Shown here one piece after another: positions 2,766 to 40,365 of a DNA stretch of 56,260 bases. Where the stretch lies: IMG/VR virus record IMGVR_UViG_3300009124_000014, positions 1-56,260 of that record, one strand, 5' to 3'. The translations under genes and the position numbers were made by a program. Numbering within the stretch: position 1 is the first letter of the stretch; the number at the start of each line of letters is the position of its first letter. This stretch comes from a virus. Under the pieces are notes generated by a model. That model was given only the letters and a program-made list of their open reading frames with translations. It was not told the origin of the DNA and ran no database searches.

Positions 2766-4639
2766 TGCCTATCGACTTCCCCGACGCCCCCTCTAACGGT
2801 GATACACATACCGTAGGAGATAAGACATGGACATGGGACGGTACTGTCTGGAATGTTGTTACCAACAGTGGTTCTGACCATGGCAACCTTGGTGGGTTGG
2901 GGGACGACGACCACACCCAGTACCTACTAGCAGACGGCACCCGTACTGCTACAGAGTTGACTGTTAGCGGAGACTTGACAGTTGATACCAGCACGTTGCA
3001 TGTTGATGCCACGAATGATCGTGTCGGTATCGGTACAACGTCACCTAACTCCGCACTTCATATCGACAGCGGGTCTACCACAAACCCTACTCATTTATTT
3101 ACTCAGGGTTATGTCGCAGATGCCGCAACGGATACACGCACTGGAACAGTGCGTAACGCTTTTGACTCCAACACTGACTATGGAACGTATTGGACATCGT
3201 TTCGTGGAGCGAACGGTGGCTCGTACAAGTCTTTGTTTGGCGTGCGGACTGGTGGTGCTGACAATGATGTTCTGACCGTTGATTCGTCTGGCAATGTCGG
3301 TATTGGTACAACCAGCCCCGCATATCCCCTAGTGGTTGACGGTGCTATCCAAGCAGAACGCTACAGGGGCGAAAATGCTCTTGTATTGAACAATTATACG
3401 ACAGCAAACCCGTCATCGAATGTGTATCTGTATTCTCCTCCGGGCGACCGTGATGCTTGGATTTACCTTGATTCAGCGGCCACTACAAGCAACTGGGGTA
3501 TATATCATCGCCAGATCGACTCAGCCGTCGGAGATGTTCCAGCGAATTCTGTCGCTTTTGTCGGGGGTGGATCAAGTTCAGCGCAGGCTTATATAGGTCT
3601 CGGTTCTGGCGACATTTGGGCTAGAGGTGATATAACAAGCGGTGGCCCAGATGGTGGTATGGTCATGCGTTCATGGACTGGTAGTTCAAGTTTTGGCATG
3701 ATTGGTACTGCAAACATGACTGGCTCTGAGTACGCTCTGCTGACTGATGGTACTAACACGTATTTATCTGGCGGTACGGGAGGTTCGGTTTGGATTCGTG
3801 GTGGAAACAACGATCAAACGCCCCAACTAGTTATTAGCAATGATGAAGTTCAGTTAATACATGATGTGTCTGGCGGTTTAGGTGCAAACTTATGGATTCG
3901 TAATGGTGTAACAGCGGTAAACACTAGTTCCGCTGTGACCTTTGAGTGCGATGCCAGTACTGACACTGCTGGACCGAACGGTCGTATAGAGACTCGTTTG
4001 GTTAGTACTGCGACGGGTAGCAGTATCATGTTGTTTGACATCTGGAACGGTAGCAGTTTTGTAGAAACGATAAAGATATCTGAGGCTTACGGTTCGGGAG
4101 CGTCAGGTGTTTCGTTTGCTAATGCCGCTGTCGCCATAGACAGGGGATGGGGAAACTACCCAAGCATTACGGTGTTTAACAACCCCGCTACAACGGAGTT
4201 CCGTATCCACGGAGCGAATACTTACTATGGCTCATACCCCGGAACATCAGGCTCTGACTTTTCAGTCAACCTGAGAATTGACGGAGGAACATACTACTCC
4301 TCGGATAGCCGCCACAAGACAAACATTGTAGACAATCCCTACGGCTTAACTGCTATAAATCAGTTACAACCACGGAAGTTTGATCGTGTTAACTCTGATG
4401 GTGATATTGAAGATCACGCTACAGATATTTTAGGTTTTATTGCCCAAGAAGTAATGGAAGTGATACCTGAGGCAGTTACTTATTATGCCGATGAAGACAC
4501 CCCAAATGAAAATGGGTGGTGTCGTTCTTACTCTCTTAGCGAATCGTACATTGTTTCAACCCTTGTCAATGCTGCAAAAGAATTATCTGCCAAGAACGAC
4601 TTGCTTGAAGCACGCATCGCTGCATTGGAGGCTAACTGA
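2765..4639 (+). CDS. Tail fibre with S74 intramolecular chaperone domain
   Basis: 624 residues. The N-terminal ~30 residues (MPIDFPDAPSNGDTHTVGDK, then W.WDG..W) parallel the start of the collar protein at 1021. Residues about 75-200 have two VGIGTTSP repeats. The long middle is Gly/Ser/Thr-rich and beta-like. The C-terminal S74 domain starts near YYSSDSRHKTNIVDN, with the S-D-x-R-x-K signature of the autoproteolytic family, and ends in a short coiled coil (ARIAALEAN). Likely a trimeric receptor-binding fibre. The TAATG overlap with the upstream gene suggests translational coupling. Confidence 0.88.
   Translation: MPIDFPDAPSNGDTHTVGDKTWTWDGTVWNVVTNSGSDHGNLGGLGDDDHTQYLLADGTRTATELTVSGDLTVDTSTLHVDATNDRVGIGTTSPNSALHIDSGSTTNPTHLFTQGYVADAATDTRTGTVRNAFDSNTDYGTYWTSFRGANGGSYKSLFGVRTGGADNDVLTVDSSGNVGIGTTSPAYPLVVDGAIQAERYRGENALVLNNYTTANPSSNVYLYSPPGDRDAWIYLDSAATTSNWGIYHRQIDSAVGDVPANSVAFVGGGSSSAQAYIGLGSGDIWARGDITSGGPDGGMVMRSWTGSSSFGMIGTANMTGSEYALLTDGTNTYLSGGTGGSVWIRGGNNDQTPQLVISNDEVQLIHDVSGGLGANLWIRNGVTAVNTSSAVTFECDASTDTAGPNGRIETRLVSTATGSSIMLFDIWNGSSFVETIKISEAYGSGASGVSFANAAVAIDRGWGNYPSITVFNNPATTEFRIHGANTYYGSYPGTSGSDFSVNLRIDGGTYYSSDSRHKTNIVDNPYGLTAINQLQPRKFDRVNSDGDIEDHATDILGFIAQEVMEVIPEAVTYYADEDTPNENGWCRSYSLSESYIVSTLVNAAKELSAKNDLLEARIAALEAN
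3023..3046 (+). repeat. 24-base direct repeat shared between fibre genes, copy 2
   Basis: Identical to 284-307. It encodes the same VGIGTTSP turn in a different fibre gene. Confidence 0.7.
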
Positions 4640-30683: not shown

Positions 30684-30700
30684 TAATCCTTACCTCTACG

Positions 30701-30728
30701 TTGCCTCAGGTGAACGTGGTGGTATAGT
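30701..30728 (+). promoter_or_regulatory. Candidate promoter of the replication operon
   Basis: TTGCCT at 30701-30706, 16-base spacer, TATAGT at 30723-30728 in the context GGTGGTATAGT. The predicted start near 30735 coincides with the beginning of a structured leader. Confidence 0.5.
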
Positions 30729-30732
30729 ACCA

Positions 30733-30846
30733 ACGTACAGTGTTGCTACTTTTAGTAGAAGTCCTCCTCAGACGGCTGTACGTGGTAGCGAGTGGCCCCC
30801 CACCTCCAGTAAGGTGTGGGGGCCGCTTGCGTAATAGGGAGGTTGT
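30733..30846 (+). ncRNA. Structured 5' leader of the replication operon, candidate riboregulator
   Basis: Three nested or serial helices are visible. P1: ACGTACAG (30733-30740) with CTGTACGT (30776-30783). Inside it P2: CTACT-ttt-AGTAG (30746-30758) and an unpaired CCTCCT (30763-30768) that could mask the GGGAGG ribosome binding site at 30837-30842. P3: an 18-pair, GC-rich hairpin (30788-30830) with loop CCAGTA, one bulged T and two G-T pairs. ATG of the first gene follows at 30847. P3 lacks a T-run, so it may terminate poorly, pause, or insulate. Regulation is inference from the base pairing. Confidence 0.5.
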
Positions 30847-31569
30847 ATGCCAGTATTTGGTGCTGATCCAGAAGCAGAAGACAGAGGATGGGAAGACGTG
30901 AGGACATCACAGGGAGTATTCGTCAGTAGGCCGGTACGGGAGTTGACCAACTATTTTGCATACCACCGCAACACTCGTATGAGTCAGCGGTGCAACGAAG
31001 AGGACAAGTCACGGTTGAACATCTTCTTCTCACGTAAACTGAAGCAGGGGTTTGACAGTGCCTCGATCAAGGAGATCATCGACAGGTTCTACCAGTCACC
31101 AGCGGGTCAGCATGAGTTTGCATCCGCACTCTTCTGCAAAGATGATGTGCAGAAGGAATTGATGGAAGATATCGACATCACCAACAACGACCCTGTTTTA
31201 CAGTGGTTGTTGGATGGGATGCCGAACAGTGGTCCTTTCACTGATCCACGTGAGGTACGCAAAGCCATCATGCAGGAGTGTGTTGAGTCGTTGCTCCGCT
31301 ACCCAGAAGTAGTCGCTGACATTATTCGCATCGACGATCCCGAGCCTCATCTCTCACACCGTTTGGCCAGTTTAGAGAGTCTGATTCTCTGGAACCTCAC
31401 AGATGATTCCGGGAATGCTGGACAATGGCAGGATGTTCTGTGTATCATCACTCTTCCTAAGGAACTGGCTTCACGAGGACGTTCACCGAAGAGCGTACGG
31501 CTTAAGCATGGTTCCGTAAAAGATGCAGTGATGAGGATTCCCATGAGGAGAAGCAAGGAGAGCAGTTGA
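30847..31569 (+). CDS. Unknown replication-operon protein
   Basis: 240 residues, SD GGGAGG. First gene after the structured leader and directly before the helicase loader, with which it overlaps (TTGAA at the stop). The segment RLNIFFSRKLKQGFDSASIK, then EIIDRFYQSPAG, is reminiscent of phage replication initiation or helicase-assistant proteins, but no catalytic motif is visible. A replisome or origin-binding role is suggested by context only. Confidence 0.6.
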   Translation: MPVFGADPEAEDRGWEDVRTSQGVFVSRPVRELTNYFAYHRNTRMSQRCNEEDKSRLNIFFSRKLKQGFDSASIKEIIDRFYQSPAGQHEFASALFCKDDVQKELMEDIDITNNDPVLQWLLDGMPNSGPFTDPREVRKAIMQECVESLLRYPEVVADIIRIDDPEPHLSHRLASLESLILWNLTDDSGNAGQWQDVLCIITLPKELASRGRSPKSVRLKHGSVKDAVMRIPMRRSKESS

Positions 31570-32135
31570 ACTTTAGTACACCAACCGAGTGGAAGAGCGA
31601 GAACTGGTGGAGAAACCGCCCAGTAGATGAGCGGCTGTTCCATCTGCACATACCTAAGCGAATTCGTGAGAACATGGAGGACTGGGAGAGTGTGGCCTTA
31701 AAGGGCGACGGCAACCTGTTCATACAGGGCGCATCAGGGTCAGGCAAGTCACTCATCGCCGCCAAGACGCTTACGTCCATCATACAGAAGCACAAAGTCT
31801 CAGGACGTTGGGTCGAGGCTGACGACTACATCGAGATGATCAAGGACTCGTTCGACAACGAGGGTGTTTTGCCTGAGATGTACTCTAGCCCCCATGTCGT
31901 GAAGTACGTCAAAGGAGTGTTTGATGTCGTTGTCATCGACGGTCTTGGAGAAGAGCGTCTGACGGAGTTCGCTAGTCACGAGTTGGGGAGCCTTATCCGT
32001 AAGCGGTTCGACAAGCAGAAGGCGACGATTATCACGTCACGACTTTCGTTACAGGACATCAAGCACCGCTATGGACCTAGGTTGGCTAATCCGCTCGCAG
32101 ACTTTGAGTTTGAGGTTCTCCGTGGAAAACGGTGA
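31566..32135 (+). CDS. DnaC-like helicase loader ATPase
   Basis: 189 residues from TTG 31566. Walker A GASGSGKS at residues 55-62 and Walker B VVVIDGLGEE near 120, with a sensor-like TIITSR later, identify a small AAA+ protein of the DnaC/IstB kind. Such proteins load DnaB-type helicases onto DNA, and the helicase is encoded two genes downstream. Its end overlaps the next start. Confidence 0.85.
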   Translation: MNFSTPTEWKSENWWRNRPVDERLFHLHIPKRIRENMEDWESVALKGDGNLFIQGASGSGKSLIAAKTLTSIIQKHKVSGRWVEADDYIEMIKDSFDNEGVLPEMYSSPHVVKYVKGVFDVVVIDGLGEERLTEFASHELGSLIRKRFDKQKATIITSRLSLQDIKHRYGPRLANPLADFEFEVLRGKR

Positions 32136-32586
32136 CATCGCCCCTACCGTGCATAAGCATATTGCTTGTTGGTTTGAAGACTTGTTGATGACACGGCAGG
32201 AAGACCAGCCGCAGAGGCGCAACCTGTTCCTTCGGCGTATCAACAGTAGAGAGATGACGTACGAAGAGGTCATCAAGAACGAGGTGCGGAAGTGGAAGGT
32301 AAACGAGATGCCTCTCAAGTCCGTGCACCATATGGTCAACCAGTTAGAACTCGGCGTGGAGGTGTACACCTACTTGGACGAGGACCTTGTTGAGCAGGTG
32401 GAGCATTGGCTCGCTAGAAAAGGTATCAGCGTGAGCGTGTATCACTACCCTGACTTTGATACTCTGCGTGACGACTTTAAGTACAACAGGGACGTGCACA
32501 CGCTGTTTACTCCGTACGAGGACGACGCGGCGTGGTTAGGGTTTAGGGCGACAGTAGTGCGCTCAGACGGGACATTTGGAATCTAA
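32122..32586 (+). CDS. Unknown protein between helicase loader and helicase
   Basis: 154 residues from GTG 32122, which has GAGG six bases upstream and overlaps the loader; a longer start at 32071 would have no site. Helical, charged, with EEVIKNEVRKWKVNEMPLKS and a C-terminal alpha/beta part. No known motif. Coupled on both sides (TAATG into the helicase gene), so probably a replication accessory. Confidence 0.7.
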   Translation: MENGDIAPTVHKHIACWFEDLLMTRQEDQPQRRNLFLRRINSREMTYEEVIKNEVRKWKVNEMPLKSVHHMVNQLELGVEVYTYLDEDLVEQVEHWLARKGISVSVYHYPDFDTLRDDFKYNRDVHTLFTPYEDDAAWLGFRATVVRSDGTFGI

Positions 32587-33836
32587 TGGCATCAATCGAA
32601 CACTTAGTAATCAGCAAGATCATCGAGGACCAGTCACTCACAGAGGCGAGCAAATCAGGCATCAAGCCTGTCTACTTCGCTGGTGAGTGGGAGTCAATCT
32701 ACCAGTGGGTTCTGGAGTACAACAGTAATCACGGCGCTGTCCCGACAGAGCGTGCGTTCCACACGGCGTATGGCGATGTGGAGATTGTCGACACCGCTAC
32801 GGAGTCGTTTAGTGGTCTTTTTGAAGAACTACTGAACGCATACCGCTCTCGTACTGTCATTGAGGCCGTTAGCGCTGCTATGGGTCCCCTTGACAAGAAC
32901 GATGTGAGCAACGCTATGTCGATCCTGTCCTCAGGGTTGCAGGCCGCTAGCACGGAAACTGCCCGACTGCGTGACTTCAATATCGTTGAGGGTTGGGAAG
33001 AGCAGTTGCAGATGTATCGAGAGATGAAGGATAACCCCAATGCTTTACGTGGCATCCCGACCGGGTTCACCGGGCTTGACCGGGTGACCTACGGATTGCG
33101 CCCCCAGCAGTTCATTGTCATGGTAGGAGAGCCTAAGCGTGGTAAATCACTCTTTGAACTGATCATGGCTAATGCCTGTCACCGTCATGGCTTGGTTCCG
33201 CTGTTCATCTCGTTTGAGATGTCTGTGGCTGAACAGCGTTCTAGGTTCTACTCTCTGATTGCAAAGATTCCCTACGAACGCATCCTCAGCGGGCAGATGT
33301 CCGAAGCAGAGTTCATGCGATTAGAGAAGTCGATGCGGATGATGAAGAACATGCAACCTTTTATGATGTCAGAAGACTCCAGCAGTCTCACCACCATCAG
33401 TGCTATCGCTGGCAAGATTCAGGAGTACCAGCCTGATGCTGTGTTCATCGACGGTATGTACCTCATGGACGACGAGAACGGAGAACCAAAAGGTACACCG
33501 CAGGCTCTGACTAACATCACTCGTGGAGTCAAGCGTCTCGCTCAGCGGTTTGACATCCCCATCGTCGGCACATCTCAGGTGTTGTCGTGGAAGTTGAACA
33601 ACAAGCGCACAAGAGCCATCACTGCTGACTCCATCGGCTACACGTCGTCTTTTGTGCAGGACGCTGACTTGGTTCTTGGTGTAGAACGCAATCCTGACCT
33701 TGACGATCAGGCCATCATTCGTGTGGTAGAGGCTCGTACGGCACCCCACGCAGAGGTCCACGTTAAGTGGGACTGGCAGACAATGGAGTTTGAAGAGGTA
33801 TCGGAGGTTGATGAAGTTGACCCATCATTCGACTGA
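32586..33836 (+). CDS. DnaB-like replicative helicase
   Basis: 416 residues. The RecA-like core has Walker A GEPKRGKS (~181-188), FISFEMS (motif 1a), FIDGMYLM (Walker B, ~290) and GTSQ with downstream VQDADLVLGVER. The N-terminal ~170 residues form a helical domain shorter than in bacterial DnaB. It unwinds DNA at the fork together with the primase encoded downstream and the loader upstream. Confidence 0.92.
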   Translation: MASIEHLVISKIIEDQSLTEASKSGIKPVYFAGEWESIYQWVLEYNSNHGAVPTERAFHTAYGDVEIVDTATESFSGLFEELLNAYRSRTVIEAVSAAMGPLDKNDVSNAMSILSSGLQAASTETARLRDFNIVEGWEEQLQMYREMKDNPNALRGIPTGFTGLDRVTYGLRPQQFIVMVGEPKRGKSLFELIMANACHRHGLVPLFISFEMSVAEQRSRFYSLIAKIPYERILSGQMSEAEFMRLEKSMRMMKNMQPFMMSEDSSSLTTISAIAGKIQEYQPDAVFIDGMYLMDDENGEPKGTPQALTNITRGVKRLAQRFDIPIVGTSQVLSWKLNNKRTRAITADSIGYTSSFVQDADLVLGVERNPDLDDQAIIRVVEARTAPHAEVHVKWDWQTMEFEEVSEVDEVDPSFD

Positions 33837-33837
33837 C

Positions 33838-34101
33838 ATGGACATAGTGGAGCGCTTGGAGTACGCATCGATGAGCACTCCAGAGATTTCCCTATTAAGA
33901 GAAGCCGCCCAGCATATTCGTAAGTTACGTGAAGAACTGGCAGAGGCTCAAGACGAGAGCATCGTCATCCACGACAAGGATGGCAACGAGTTGTGCGTTA
34001 TCGAAGGTCCAGCAGCGGAGCATCTGAAGAAGCACGCTATCTCTGACTACGTAACTAACGCCCTCCGTCACATACTGGAAGAGTATGGACAGGAGCACTG
34101 A
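33838..34101 (+). CDS. Small helical protein
   Basis: 87 residues from ATG 33838; an in-frame ATG at 33811 has GGAGG only three bases away and would add nine residues. The pattern DIVERLEYA...SLLREAAQHIRKLREEL is a recurring phage motif of short coiled proteins. It overlaps the primase start by 17 bases. Confidence 0.6.
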   Translation: MDIVERLEYASMSTPEISLLREAAQHIRKLREELAEAQDESIVIHDKDGNELCVIEGPAAEHLKKHAISDYVTNALRHILEEYGQEH

Positions 34102-34990
34102 TCTTGTAGAGGTCCTCACCGAACTAGGTGTTGACGTACGTAAGATACAGAGCGATGAGATCAACGCTCGTTGCCCTGTTCATCACCTAACCAAGGGCCG
34201 TGACAGCACTCGTTACTCTTGGTATCTCAATGTCGACACCGGTCTTTGGTACTGCTTCTCTTGCGGTGCTAGAGGTAACTTATCGCATCTGATAAGCCAA
34301 CTTACTGACGACCCTTCCGCTCTTTGGGGCATCCAAACTCATCTCATTGAGTCTGGTCTCAAGCGCCTAACTACAGTTGAGGAAGACGTTTCAGAGGCTT
34401 ACACGCCTTTAGACTGGAATCGGTACACGTCTTTTGAACTTTACCCAGCAAGACTGTGTGAAATACGTCACATTGATATCGACGTAGCGCATCGTTACGG
34501 CATTAGGTGGGATAAGGATACTAAGTCCACAGTTATCCCTATCGTGTCCCCCATAGGCCAGTTGTGGGGGTGGCAACTAAAGAAAGAAGGGTGGGTACGT
34601 AACTACCCAGAGGGTGTGCATAAGGGAGACACCTTGTTCGGTATCGAGCGTGCTCACGGCGACACTGGCCTGTTGTTGGAGTCTCCCTTAGACGTAGTGC
34701 GCTTCCACTCAGTGTACGGTGGTTCTGAGGTTTCGGCAGTAGCGTCGTTTGGTGCCAACGTGTCCTCCAACCAAATATCACTTCTATGTGATAGATTTGA
34801 TTCACTGGTCATTGCTCTGGACAACGATAAGGCGGGCAAGATGGAGACAACGAGAGTAGCCAAGAGCCTCCCCTCCCTCCGTCACGGTGTTCGCTACTGG
34901 AAGTACTTAGACGATGTGAAGGACCTTGGCGACATGTCCGATGTACAGATCATCAAGGGCATTCTCAATACGTCGGTGATCCATGTTTAA
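34085..34990 (+). CDS. DnaG-type primase with zinc finger and Toprim domain
   Basis: 301 residues. CHC2-like zinc ligands C30-x2-H33 and C57-x2-C60 (CPVHH...CFSCGARGN). The Toprim fold has LLLESPLDVV (~196, catalytic Glu) and VIALDNDKAG (~243, Asp-x-Asp). It is shorter than bacterial DnaG, lacking the helicase-binding tail. It synthesises RNA primers for the phage fork. It overlaps the next gene by eight bases. Confidence 0.9.
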   Translation: MDRSTDLVEVLTELGVDVRKIQSDEINARCPVHHLTKGRDSTRYSWYLNVDTGLWYCFSCGARGNLSHLISQLTDDPSALWGIQTHLIESGLKRLTTVEEDVSEAYTPLDWNRYTSFELYPARLCEIRHIDIDVAHRYGIRWDKDTKSTVIPIVSPIGQLWGWQLKKEGWVRNYPEGVHKGDTLFGIERAHGDTGLLLESPLDVVRFHSVYGGSEVSAVASFGANVSSNQISLLCDRFDSLVIALDNDKAGKMETTRVAKSLPSLRHGVRYWKYLDDVKDLGDMSDVQIIKGILNTSVIHV

Positions 34991-38268: not shown

Positions 38269-40365
38269 GTGAACCTCAACAGTGCAGGCGACCAGCGGGG
38301 GCCGAGTGCCCCCGCTGTGTTGTCTATATCGGAGTTATCGACCATTGTCGATATCGTCAAGGAGGAGGGAGCCTTCTCGTTTGACGTAGAAACACGTGGC
38401 AACATTGAGCGTCATGCTGATGTGATGGACCTCGTAGAGCAAGAGTGGATCGCTAAAGAGGCCACCTTGAAGGCCACTCACCCATCAGTGCGTGAGCGCT
38501 CACGTCAGGCCATCGAAGACAAGTGGCGTGGAAACGTAGCCATTGACACCTTGCGTAACGAGGTCTTTTGGATAGGTATCGCCACTCGTAACCACTCTTG
38601 GGCTATCCCTATGGGTCACCCCAACGGTGAAATACTCGTACCGGAAGACAGGGGCGATGGCAGTACCATCCCCCCTGAAGGCTACAGGGCTGTACTTGCT
38701 TCTGGTAAGGAGTCGATGGCTCGTGCAAAGTACTTCATTCCTGCTACGTTCACAGATCCCCCGGAGCAGTTAACACAAGAGCAGGTCTTTACTGCTTTAG
38801 AACCGCTGTTCATGGATGAGGGGATCGTTAAGGTCAATCAGAACATCAAGTTCGATGTGAAGTCAGTGGCTAAGTACTACGGTGGCGAACTACCTAAAGG
38901 TAGGTATATCGACACCATGATCCTCATGCATATCGTGGACGAGAACCTGCCATCGTACAGTCTGAAGAACATCATTGATCGTGTGTACGGCTTTGATCCC
39001 TATCACAGGGACGGCAAGATCGGTAAAACCATCACGACAGAGCCTTTCAGCAAGGCGTGCCGCTACGTTCACTATGACGCCCGTTGGGCTTGGATGCTTT
39101 ACCGGCGTTTGTATAAGTCGATCATGTCGGTGCCGTCTCTGTCTAAGGCTCTTTACCTTGACTTAGATGTCCTTAGTGTCCTTGCACAGATGGAGATGAA
39201 CGGTATCGCCGTCAACCAGCGTGCTATGAAGAATCTCCGCAAGGAACTCGACCTCGACCTCAACACGAAGTTATTGGACATCTCCCAGTACGCCCCCGTC
39301 GGTTTCAATCCTGACAGTAACGCTCACAAGGCCAAGTTCTTGTTCGGTAAGAAGCGTGAGGGCGGTCTTGGTCTGAAGCCGAAAAAGGTGACAGCCAAAG
39401 GTAATCCAAGTGTAGATGACGACTCTTTGAAGTCATTGCAGGGCAAGCACCCCGTCATTGACATGCTGATGGAGTACGCCGAGTTGAAGAAGATGAAGTC
39501 GACGTATGTTGATGGGCTGATCCCACTGCTTCACAGTGGTCGCCTCCATCCCCAGTTCCACTTGCATAGGACTGCTACAGGACGCCTATCCGCTAGTGAC
39601 CCCAATCTTCAGAACATTCCTAGAGACGGTAGGGTTCGTGGATTGTTTGTGGCAGAGCCGGGGAACAGTCTTGTAGTGGCTGACTACTCTCAGATCGAGA
39701 TGCGCATCATGGCTATGTACTCGCAGGACCCTGAGTTGATGAACATCTTTGAGAACAACATCGACGTACACGCCGGTACTGCTAGCGTCATCTTAGGGAA
39801 GCCCCCCGAAGAAGTGACAGGGGAAGAGAGGACGATCTATGGAAAAGTTCCGAACTTCCTCATGGGCTACGGCGGCGGTCCTAAGCGTCTTGTCGATGCT
39901 ACTGGTGGTCAGTTATCTCTTGATGAGGCTCGTGTTGTCGTAGATAACTACAACGCAGGGTACAAAGGTTTGACCTCGTGGAAGGCCAATGTCCTAATGA
40001 AGGCCCGTAAGCAAGGGTACGTTGAGACTATGTACGGTCGTAGACGGAGAGTTCCGGGCCTCTCATCAGATGATTTTGCAGAGAAGTCGAGGTCGGAACG
40101 TCAGGCTATTAACGCTATAGTTCAGGGGACTGCTTCTGAGATATGTAAGGATGCGATGCTCACAGTTAGTTCGGCGTTGCCTTACCCTAAATGCAGGATG
40201 CTGGTGCAGGTGCATGACGAGTTAGTCGTCTCAGTACCCACTGATGAGGTAGTTGAGTGGGCGTCAACCATCGAGAGAGCCATGGGAAATGGTAAGGTGA
40301 TTATGGGAGTTAGTTTGGAAGTCGAAGCACACTTTGCTCAGTCTTGGGCGGAGGCGAAGGGATGA
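38269..40365 (+). CDS. Family A DNA polymerase with 3'-5' exonuclease domain
   Basis: 698 residues if GTG 38269 is used; GTG 38317 or TTG 38320 would put the start after the hairpin. Exonuclease motif SFDVETRG begins at residue 37, with VNQNIKFDVKS and YVHYDARWAW as Exo II/III. Polymerase motifs: A DYSQIEMR (~471), O-helix RTIYGKVPNFLMGYGGG (~521), C VQVHDELV (~646). Length is close to T7 polymerase. It replicates the phage genome with the helicase, primase and SSB upstream. Confidence 0.95.
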   Translation: MNLNSAGDQRGPSAPAVLSISELSTIVDIVKEEGAFSFDVETRGNIERHADVMDLVEQEWIAKEATLKATHPSVRERSRQAIEDKWRGNVAIDTLRNEVFWIGIATRNHSWAIPMGHPNGEILVPEDRGDGSTIPPEGYRAVLASGKESMARAKYFIPATFTDPPEQLTQEQVFTALEPLFMDEGIVKVNQNIKFDVKSVAKYYGGELPKGRYIDTMILMHIVDENLPSYSLKNIIDRVYGFDPYHRDGKIGKTITTEPFSKACRYVHYDARWAWMLYRRLYKSIMSVPSLSKALYLDLDVLSVLAQMEMNGIAVNQRAMKNLRKELDLDLNTKLLDISQYAPVGFNPDSNAHKAKFLFGKKREGGLGLKPKKVTAKGNPSVDDDSLKSLQGKHPVIDMLMEYAELKKMKSTYVDGLIPLLHSGRLHPQFHLHRTATGRLSASDPNLQNIPRDGRVRGLFVAEPGNSLVVADYSQIEMRIMAMYSQDPELMNIFENNIDVHAGTASVILGKPPEEVTGEERTIYGKVPNFLMGYGGGPKRLVDATGGQLSLDEARVVVDNYNAGYKGLTSWKANVLMKARKQGYVETMYGRRRRVPGLSSDDFAEKSRSERQAINAIVQGTASEICKDAMLTVSSALPYPKCRMLVQVHDELVVSVPTDEVVEWASTIERAMGNGKVIMGVSLEVEAHFAQSWAEAKG
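38293..38317 (+). terminator. Perfect GC-rich hairpin between SSB and polymerase genes
   Basis: CAGCGGGGGC (38293-38302) pairs perfectly with GCCCCCGCTG (38308-38317), loop CGAGT, then TGTTGTCTAT. It begins 26 bases after the SSB stop and lies within the first codons of the polymerase frame if GTG 38269 is the start. A partial terminator here would keep SSB mRNA above polymerase mRNA. Confidence 0.6.

What the first reader, a model, noticed from the sequence alone, without database searches (positions are those of the whole stretch)
30701..30846. Structured leader RNA with a masked ribosome site before the replication operon
In this densely packed genome the largest gap holds a promoter (TTGCCT-16-TATAGT), then an 8-pair helix P1 whose 5' arm begins at the predicted transcript start, a small helix P2 and a CCTCCT able to pair with the GGGAGG ribosome site, and an 18-pair GC hairpin P3 just upstream of that site. 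The layout resembles a riboregulator or attenuator. It could control the switch into replication. Seen: the base pairing. Inferred: the regulatory role.
Basis: partly seen in the sequence, partly recalled or inferred. Interest (0 to 1): 0.65.

Follow-up and report, generated by a model that had tools for sequence, protein, structure and literature searches.

The report
Conserved hairpin leader before phage replication genes
Just before its DNA-replication genes this uncultured phage makes an RNA leader with a stem at its very 5' end and a strong hairpin beside the ribosome site; related phages keep the same two-stem plan with matching sequence changes, so the structure is real, but the idea that it hides the ribosome site is not supported.

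Summary
The window is an IMG/VR phage record. The 163-nt gap 30684-30846 precedes an unassigned gene followed by DnaC-like, DnaB and primase genes. Promoter, P1, P2, CCTCCT, GGGAGG and the 18-pair hairpin P3 are all present; P3 is the strongest hairpin in the window. Relatives (42-69% protein identity) carry a leader at the same place in several distinct lineages. A covariance model built from three of them finds the other leaders exactly there. Over eight aligned leaders 96.7% of pair cells are standard and 12 of 25 pairs show changes on both sides (shuffled mean 3.0). In every lineage the -10 box ends 5-6 nt before the first stem, so the transcript appears to start with a stem. RNAalifold leaves the pyrimidine tract (equivalent of CCTCCT) and the ribosome site unpaired; masking is no stronger than composition predicts. 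The window's own P1 is lineage-specific and unremarkable by energy. P3 has no U-run. The leader is missing in at least three lineages. Best reading: a conserved structured 5' UTR, probably stabilising the replication-operon mRNA and setting its translation. A regulated switch is possible but not shown. New leader family, not in Rfam; ordinary kind of mechanism.

The parts
30701..30728 (+). Promoter-like -35 TTGCCT / 16 nt / extended -10 TATAGT; predicted transcript start about 30735
   Evidence: same position relative to the first stem in all homologous leaders, -10 ends 5-6 nt before it
30733..30783 (+). P1: 5' arm 30733-30740, 3' arm 30776-30783; 5'-terminal stem specific to the window's lineage
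   Evidence: not above shuffles by energy; relatives have a different stem (GGCACC/GGTGTC) at the same +1 position
30746..30758 (+). P2: CTACT-TTT-AGTAG, the part that aligns to the relatives' P1
30759..30770 (+). Pyrimidine tract with CCTCCT (30763-30768), counterpart of TCTCYTTTCA in relatives; unpaired in the family consensus
30788..30830 (+). P3: 18-pair GC-rich hairpin just upstream of the ribosome site; no U-run follows
   Evidence: family P3 covaries
30837..30842 (+). Ribosome site GGGAGG, 4 nt before the ATG at 30847
30847..31569 (+). First gene of the replication operon, 240 aa, no Pfam or PHROG match; start MPVFGADP conserved
31566..34990 (+). DnaC-like helicase loader, unknown, DnaB-like helicase, unknown, primase

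Best explanation
The gap is a conserved structured 5' untranslated leader carried with its own sigma-70-type promoter. Shown by comparison: the predicted transcript begins with a stem (P1 in relatives, a lineage-specific P1/P2 in the window), then a single-stranded pyrimidine-rich stretch, then a strong GC hairpin (P3, in most relatives extended to within a few nt of the ribosome site), then an unpaired ribosome site and ATG. Inferred: the 5'-terminal stem protects the long replication-operon mRNA from 5'-end-dependent decay, and P3 walls off the ribosome site from upstream RNA, so the module mainly gives stable, well-initiated expression of the replication genes rather than a ligand- or fold-switched response. 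That it is a conserved RNA structure I hold at about 0.9; the stability/insulation role at about 0.45.
For: Leaders before the same gene in seven separable lineages. Model R1 from three close leaders finds L178/L183 (E 1e-5 to 8e-5), L001 (0.003), L035 (0.013) and L118 (0.05) at exactly this place in 383 kb; each tested record has at most one convincing copy. Covariation: 96.7% of cells paired, 12 pairs changed on both sides against 3.0 in shuffles and 0-2 when slid; RNAalifold predicts the same P1 and P3 with tract and ribosome site unpaired. The -10 box ends 5-6 nt before the first stem in every lineage, so the 5' end is predicted to be base-paired; such 5' stems are known to hinder RppH and RNase E (PMC3997798). 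Five-prime parts of the relatives' leaders are modestly more stable than shuffles (p 0.03-0.15).
Against: No transcript data; starts are inferred from hexamers. The window's leader matches the family model only weakly (10.4 bits in a targeted search, not found in a whole-window scan) and its P1 is not above chance by energy. For the window and L026 the stem at +1 was chosen by looking there. At least three lineages do without the leader. The conserved pyrimidine tract is not explained by a pure stability role. The host and its decay enzymes are unknown. The counted alignment was fitted to the structure, which inflates pair counts.
Confidence: 0.5

Rival explanations
1. Riboregulator that masks its own ribosome site: CCTCCT pairs with GGGAGG (with the 5' end on the start-codon region), P1 frees it, and a factor or the order of folding chooses.
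For: Two nearly equal, mutually exclusive folds in the window, -56.8 and -57.7; minimum-energy folds of L035, L183 and L118 pair tract and ribosome site; pyrimidine tract conserved.
Against: Tract-to-site pairing not above composition-preserving shuffles (window p 0.76, others 0.08-0.5); opening energy of the window's site equals the genome median; consensus structure leaves both unpaired; the P1 that would compete is absent in relatives, and their P1 does not exclude the pairing.
Confidence: 0.14
2. Transcription attenuator or small-RNA terminator: P3 stops a share of transcripts, leaving a short RNA of about 95 nt.
For: Strong GC hairpin soon after a promoter; the layout resembles attenuators.
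Against: No U-run after P3 in any leader (at most 3 T in the following 8-9 nt), while some other hairpins in relative G001 do have T-richer tails; no competing antiterminator strong enough to open P3 was seen; no conserved upstream ORF.
Confidence: 0.13
3. Recognition site for a protein acting on RNA polymerase or ribosome: P1, single-stranded UCUCYUUUCA (boxA-like CUCUUUCA in L110-type leaders) and P3 as a nut- or put-like antitermination signal, or a ribosome standby site.
For: Primary sequence GGTGTCTCYTTTCA..GGTATGGG is conserved across leaders whose first-gene proteins are well diverged; placed just after an operon promoter, as nut sites are.
Against: Tract in the window and L183 is CCTCCTCA / TCTCCTCA, a poor boxA; no N-like protein identified; no Rfam match. 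boxA resemblance is from memory, not tested.
Confidence: 0.13
4. RNase III or other processing site: P3 is cut to give a new 5' end next to the ribosome site.
For: 12-18 pair, sometimes extended, near-perfect stem.
Against: No direct evidence; stem length and loop vary widely between leaders.
Confidence: 0.1

Closest known systems
5'-terminal stabilising stem-loops of bacterial mRNAs (ompA, papA type; reviewed in PMC3997798)
   Same: Stem at or within a nucleotide or two of +1, unpaired ribosome site downstream, no ligand needed
   Different: Here a second strong hairpin abuts the ribosome site, and stability was not measured; sequence unrelated
Extended start-associated sequences (ESAS) of Cluster K mycobacteriophages and analogues in Microbacterium phages (PMC3203893, PMC7302621)
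   Same: Inverted repeat immediately upstream of the ribosome site of non-structural genes in phages of Actinobacteria
   Different: ESAS occur in many copies with a conserved sequence and without pairing-preserving changes, read as DNA sites; this one is single-copy, varies in sequence and shows compensatory changes
Phage nut/put antitermination leaders (lambda, HK022)
   Same: RNA hairpins and a single-stranded tract just after an operon promoter
   Different: No boxA in the window, no partner protein identified; resemblance from general knowledge only

Membership tests
Conserved structured leader RNA (own family, models R1/R2) | Same genomic place, P1 and P3 kept by compensatory changes | tested here: met
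Conserved structured leader RNA (own family, models R1/R2) | Window's own leader recognised by the family model | tested here: inconclusive
   10.4 bits, E 0.0035 in a 177-base targeted search; not found in whole-window scans
5'-terminal stabilising stem-loop | Stem begins at the transcript start | tested here: inconclusive
   met by prediction only: -10 box ends 5-6 nt before the stem in all leaders; no mapped 5' ends
5'-terminal stabilising stem-loop | Removing the stem shortens mRNA half-life | not testable with these tools
   needs experiment
Translational riboregulator with masked ribosome site | Anti-ribosome-site pairing stronger than expected and conserved | tested here: not met
Intrinsic-terminator attenuator | GC hairpin followed by a U-run | tested here: not met
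Leader-peptide attenuator | Conserved short ORF in the leader | tested here: not met
   start, frame and length differ between leaders; none beginning with ATG in the window
ESAS (Cluster K) | Repeated copies with conserved sequence, no RNA-pairing support | tested here: not met
   single copy, compensatory changes; definition from PMC3203893
Any Rfam 15 family | Score at or above gathering cut-off | tested here: not met

The most novel reading that the evidence does not exclude
The leader is a binding site for a phage or host factor that times the start of replication-gene expression, through the conserved single-stranded tract between P1 and P3 (antitermination-like or translational).
Probability: 0.2. 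Interest if true: 0.65.

Novelty: new member of a known kind. Interest (0 to 1): 0.4.

Why it matters
It gives a testable, covariation-supported leader RNA family at the head of the replication operon in uncultured tailed phages whose replicative proteins resemble those of Streptomyces phages. If factor-dependent it would be a control point for entry into replication; if not, it is a compact natural 5' UTR for stable expression.

Tried and rejected
GenBank phages: no DNA match to the region and no protein match to the first gene; no match in bacterial and archaeal genomes. Rfam: nothing above threshold. MAFFT alignments misplaced the stems, so covariance-model alignments were used; model R1 carried two mistyped outer pairs, removed in R2. 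Ribosome-site masking: tested and not above null. Upstream ORF: rejected. A weak R2 hit in G015 (3419-3510) lies on the strand opposite to its genes and was dismissed as chance. Repressor-operator and replication-origin ideas were considered and not pursued: several relatives lack the leader entirely and GC skew does not turn sharply there.

Full report
What was checked. P3 is the strongest 44-base hairpin in the window. The leader folds better than its shuffles, almost entirely because of P3; P1 and P2 alone do not. The P1 fold and the fold that covers the ribosome site differ by about 1 kcal/mol and swap with a 2-nt shift of the start or a change of the 3' end, so prediction from the window alone cannot say whether the site is masked.

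Context. The window is a virus record of IMG/VR. The gene after the gap (240 aa) has no Pfam or PHROG match; it is followed by DnaC-like, DnaB-like and primase genes, later SSB, A-family polymerase and RecA/UvsX-like genes. DnaB and PolA relatives include Streptomyces phages at about 31-32% identity, so an actinobacterial host is plausible but not shown.

Relatives. Pattern and protein scans of viral contigs gave homologues of the first gene. Those with about 40-69% identity fall into leader-bearing lineages (window, L001, L110/L111/L127, L183/L178, L118, L035, L026) and leaderless ones, in which the upstream gene abuts the start codon (L113, L116/L117/L120/L121, L181). The tree needs at least three gains or losses of the leader; L001 is the window's sister (98/96). 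A far group (21-24% identity) has its own, different hairpin leader at the same place.

Structure. A model from three close leaders recovers the other leaders at this exact place. On the resulting alignment of eight leaders 12 of 25 pairs show changes on both sides, 17 cells against 3.3 in shuffles, and sliding destroys the signal. RNAalifold, given only the alignment, predicts P1 and an extended P3, and leaves the pyrimidine tract and ribosome site unpaired. Because the alignment was fitted to a structure, the counts lean upwards; the slid controls and the diversity of pairs in P3 (for example C-G, G-C and U-A at one pair) make the conclusion reasonably safe. The tested records hold at most one convincing copy each.

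The window within the family.

Transcript start. A best-promoter search in the 60 bases before the first stem gave TTGACA-like/TAnnnT pairs whose -10 ends 5-6 nt before the stem in every lineage. The transcript is therefore expected to begin with a stem. For the window and L026 the stem was itself chosen with the promoter in view.

Masking and attenuation. Pairing between tract and ribosome site does not exceed a null that keeps linker composition, and opening the window's site costs the median of its other genes. No leader has a U-run after P3, and no upstream ORF is conserved. These readings are less likely but not excluded.

Interpretation. The simplest account is a structured 5' UTR that protects the 5' end and isolates the ribosome site. 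5'-terminal stems are known to hinder RppH and RNase E (PMC3997798). The conserved single-stranded tract is the main feature that this does not explain and the best lead for a binding factor. Against the nearest phage precedent, the Cluster K ESAS, this element differs in copy number, sequence variability and compensatory change (PMC3203893).

Noticed in passing
window 38286-38325: Second strongest hairpin of the window, at the SSB/PolA junction and apparently inside the first codons of polA. It is at the same place in nine relatives, including phages without the leader and a 53%-identity group; in a codon-level alignment of seven, 5 of 13 pairs change on both sides (shuffled mean 1.7), some of them changing amino acids.
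   Followed up: partly
L150, L164, L147, L179, L175, L177, L169, L182, L167, upstream of the homologous gene: Far homologues have a different leader: a 13-14 pair stem (CAAAGGAAAATGTC/GACATTTTCCTTTG and variants with matching changes) followed by GGGCTTCGCCC before the ribosome site; upstream are repeated GGGGGTCACCAGTGACC blocks.
   Followed up: partly
L026 / L125 leader: The 10-pair stem TCTCAGGTAG/CTACCTGAGA begins at the predicted start, and CACAGGGG inside it can pair with CCTCCTGTG downstream, a possible pseudoknot or switch.
   Followed up: no
L198 (G001:C1:5701-5744, minus strand): In a relative another strong GC hairpin (AAAGGGCGGGGGC/GCCCCCGCCCTTT) lies just upstream of AGGAG and ATG of what looks like a different gene.
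   Followed up: no
window 30697-30736: TACGTTG and CAACGTA form a 7-base inverted repeat flanking the promoter; could be an operator or chance.
   Followed up: no
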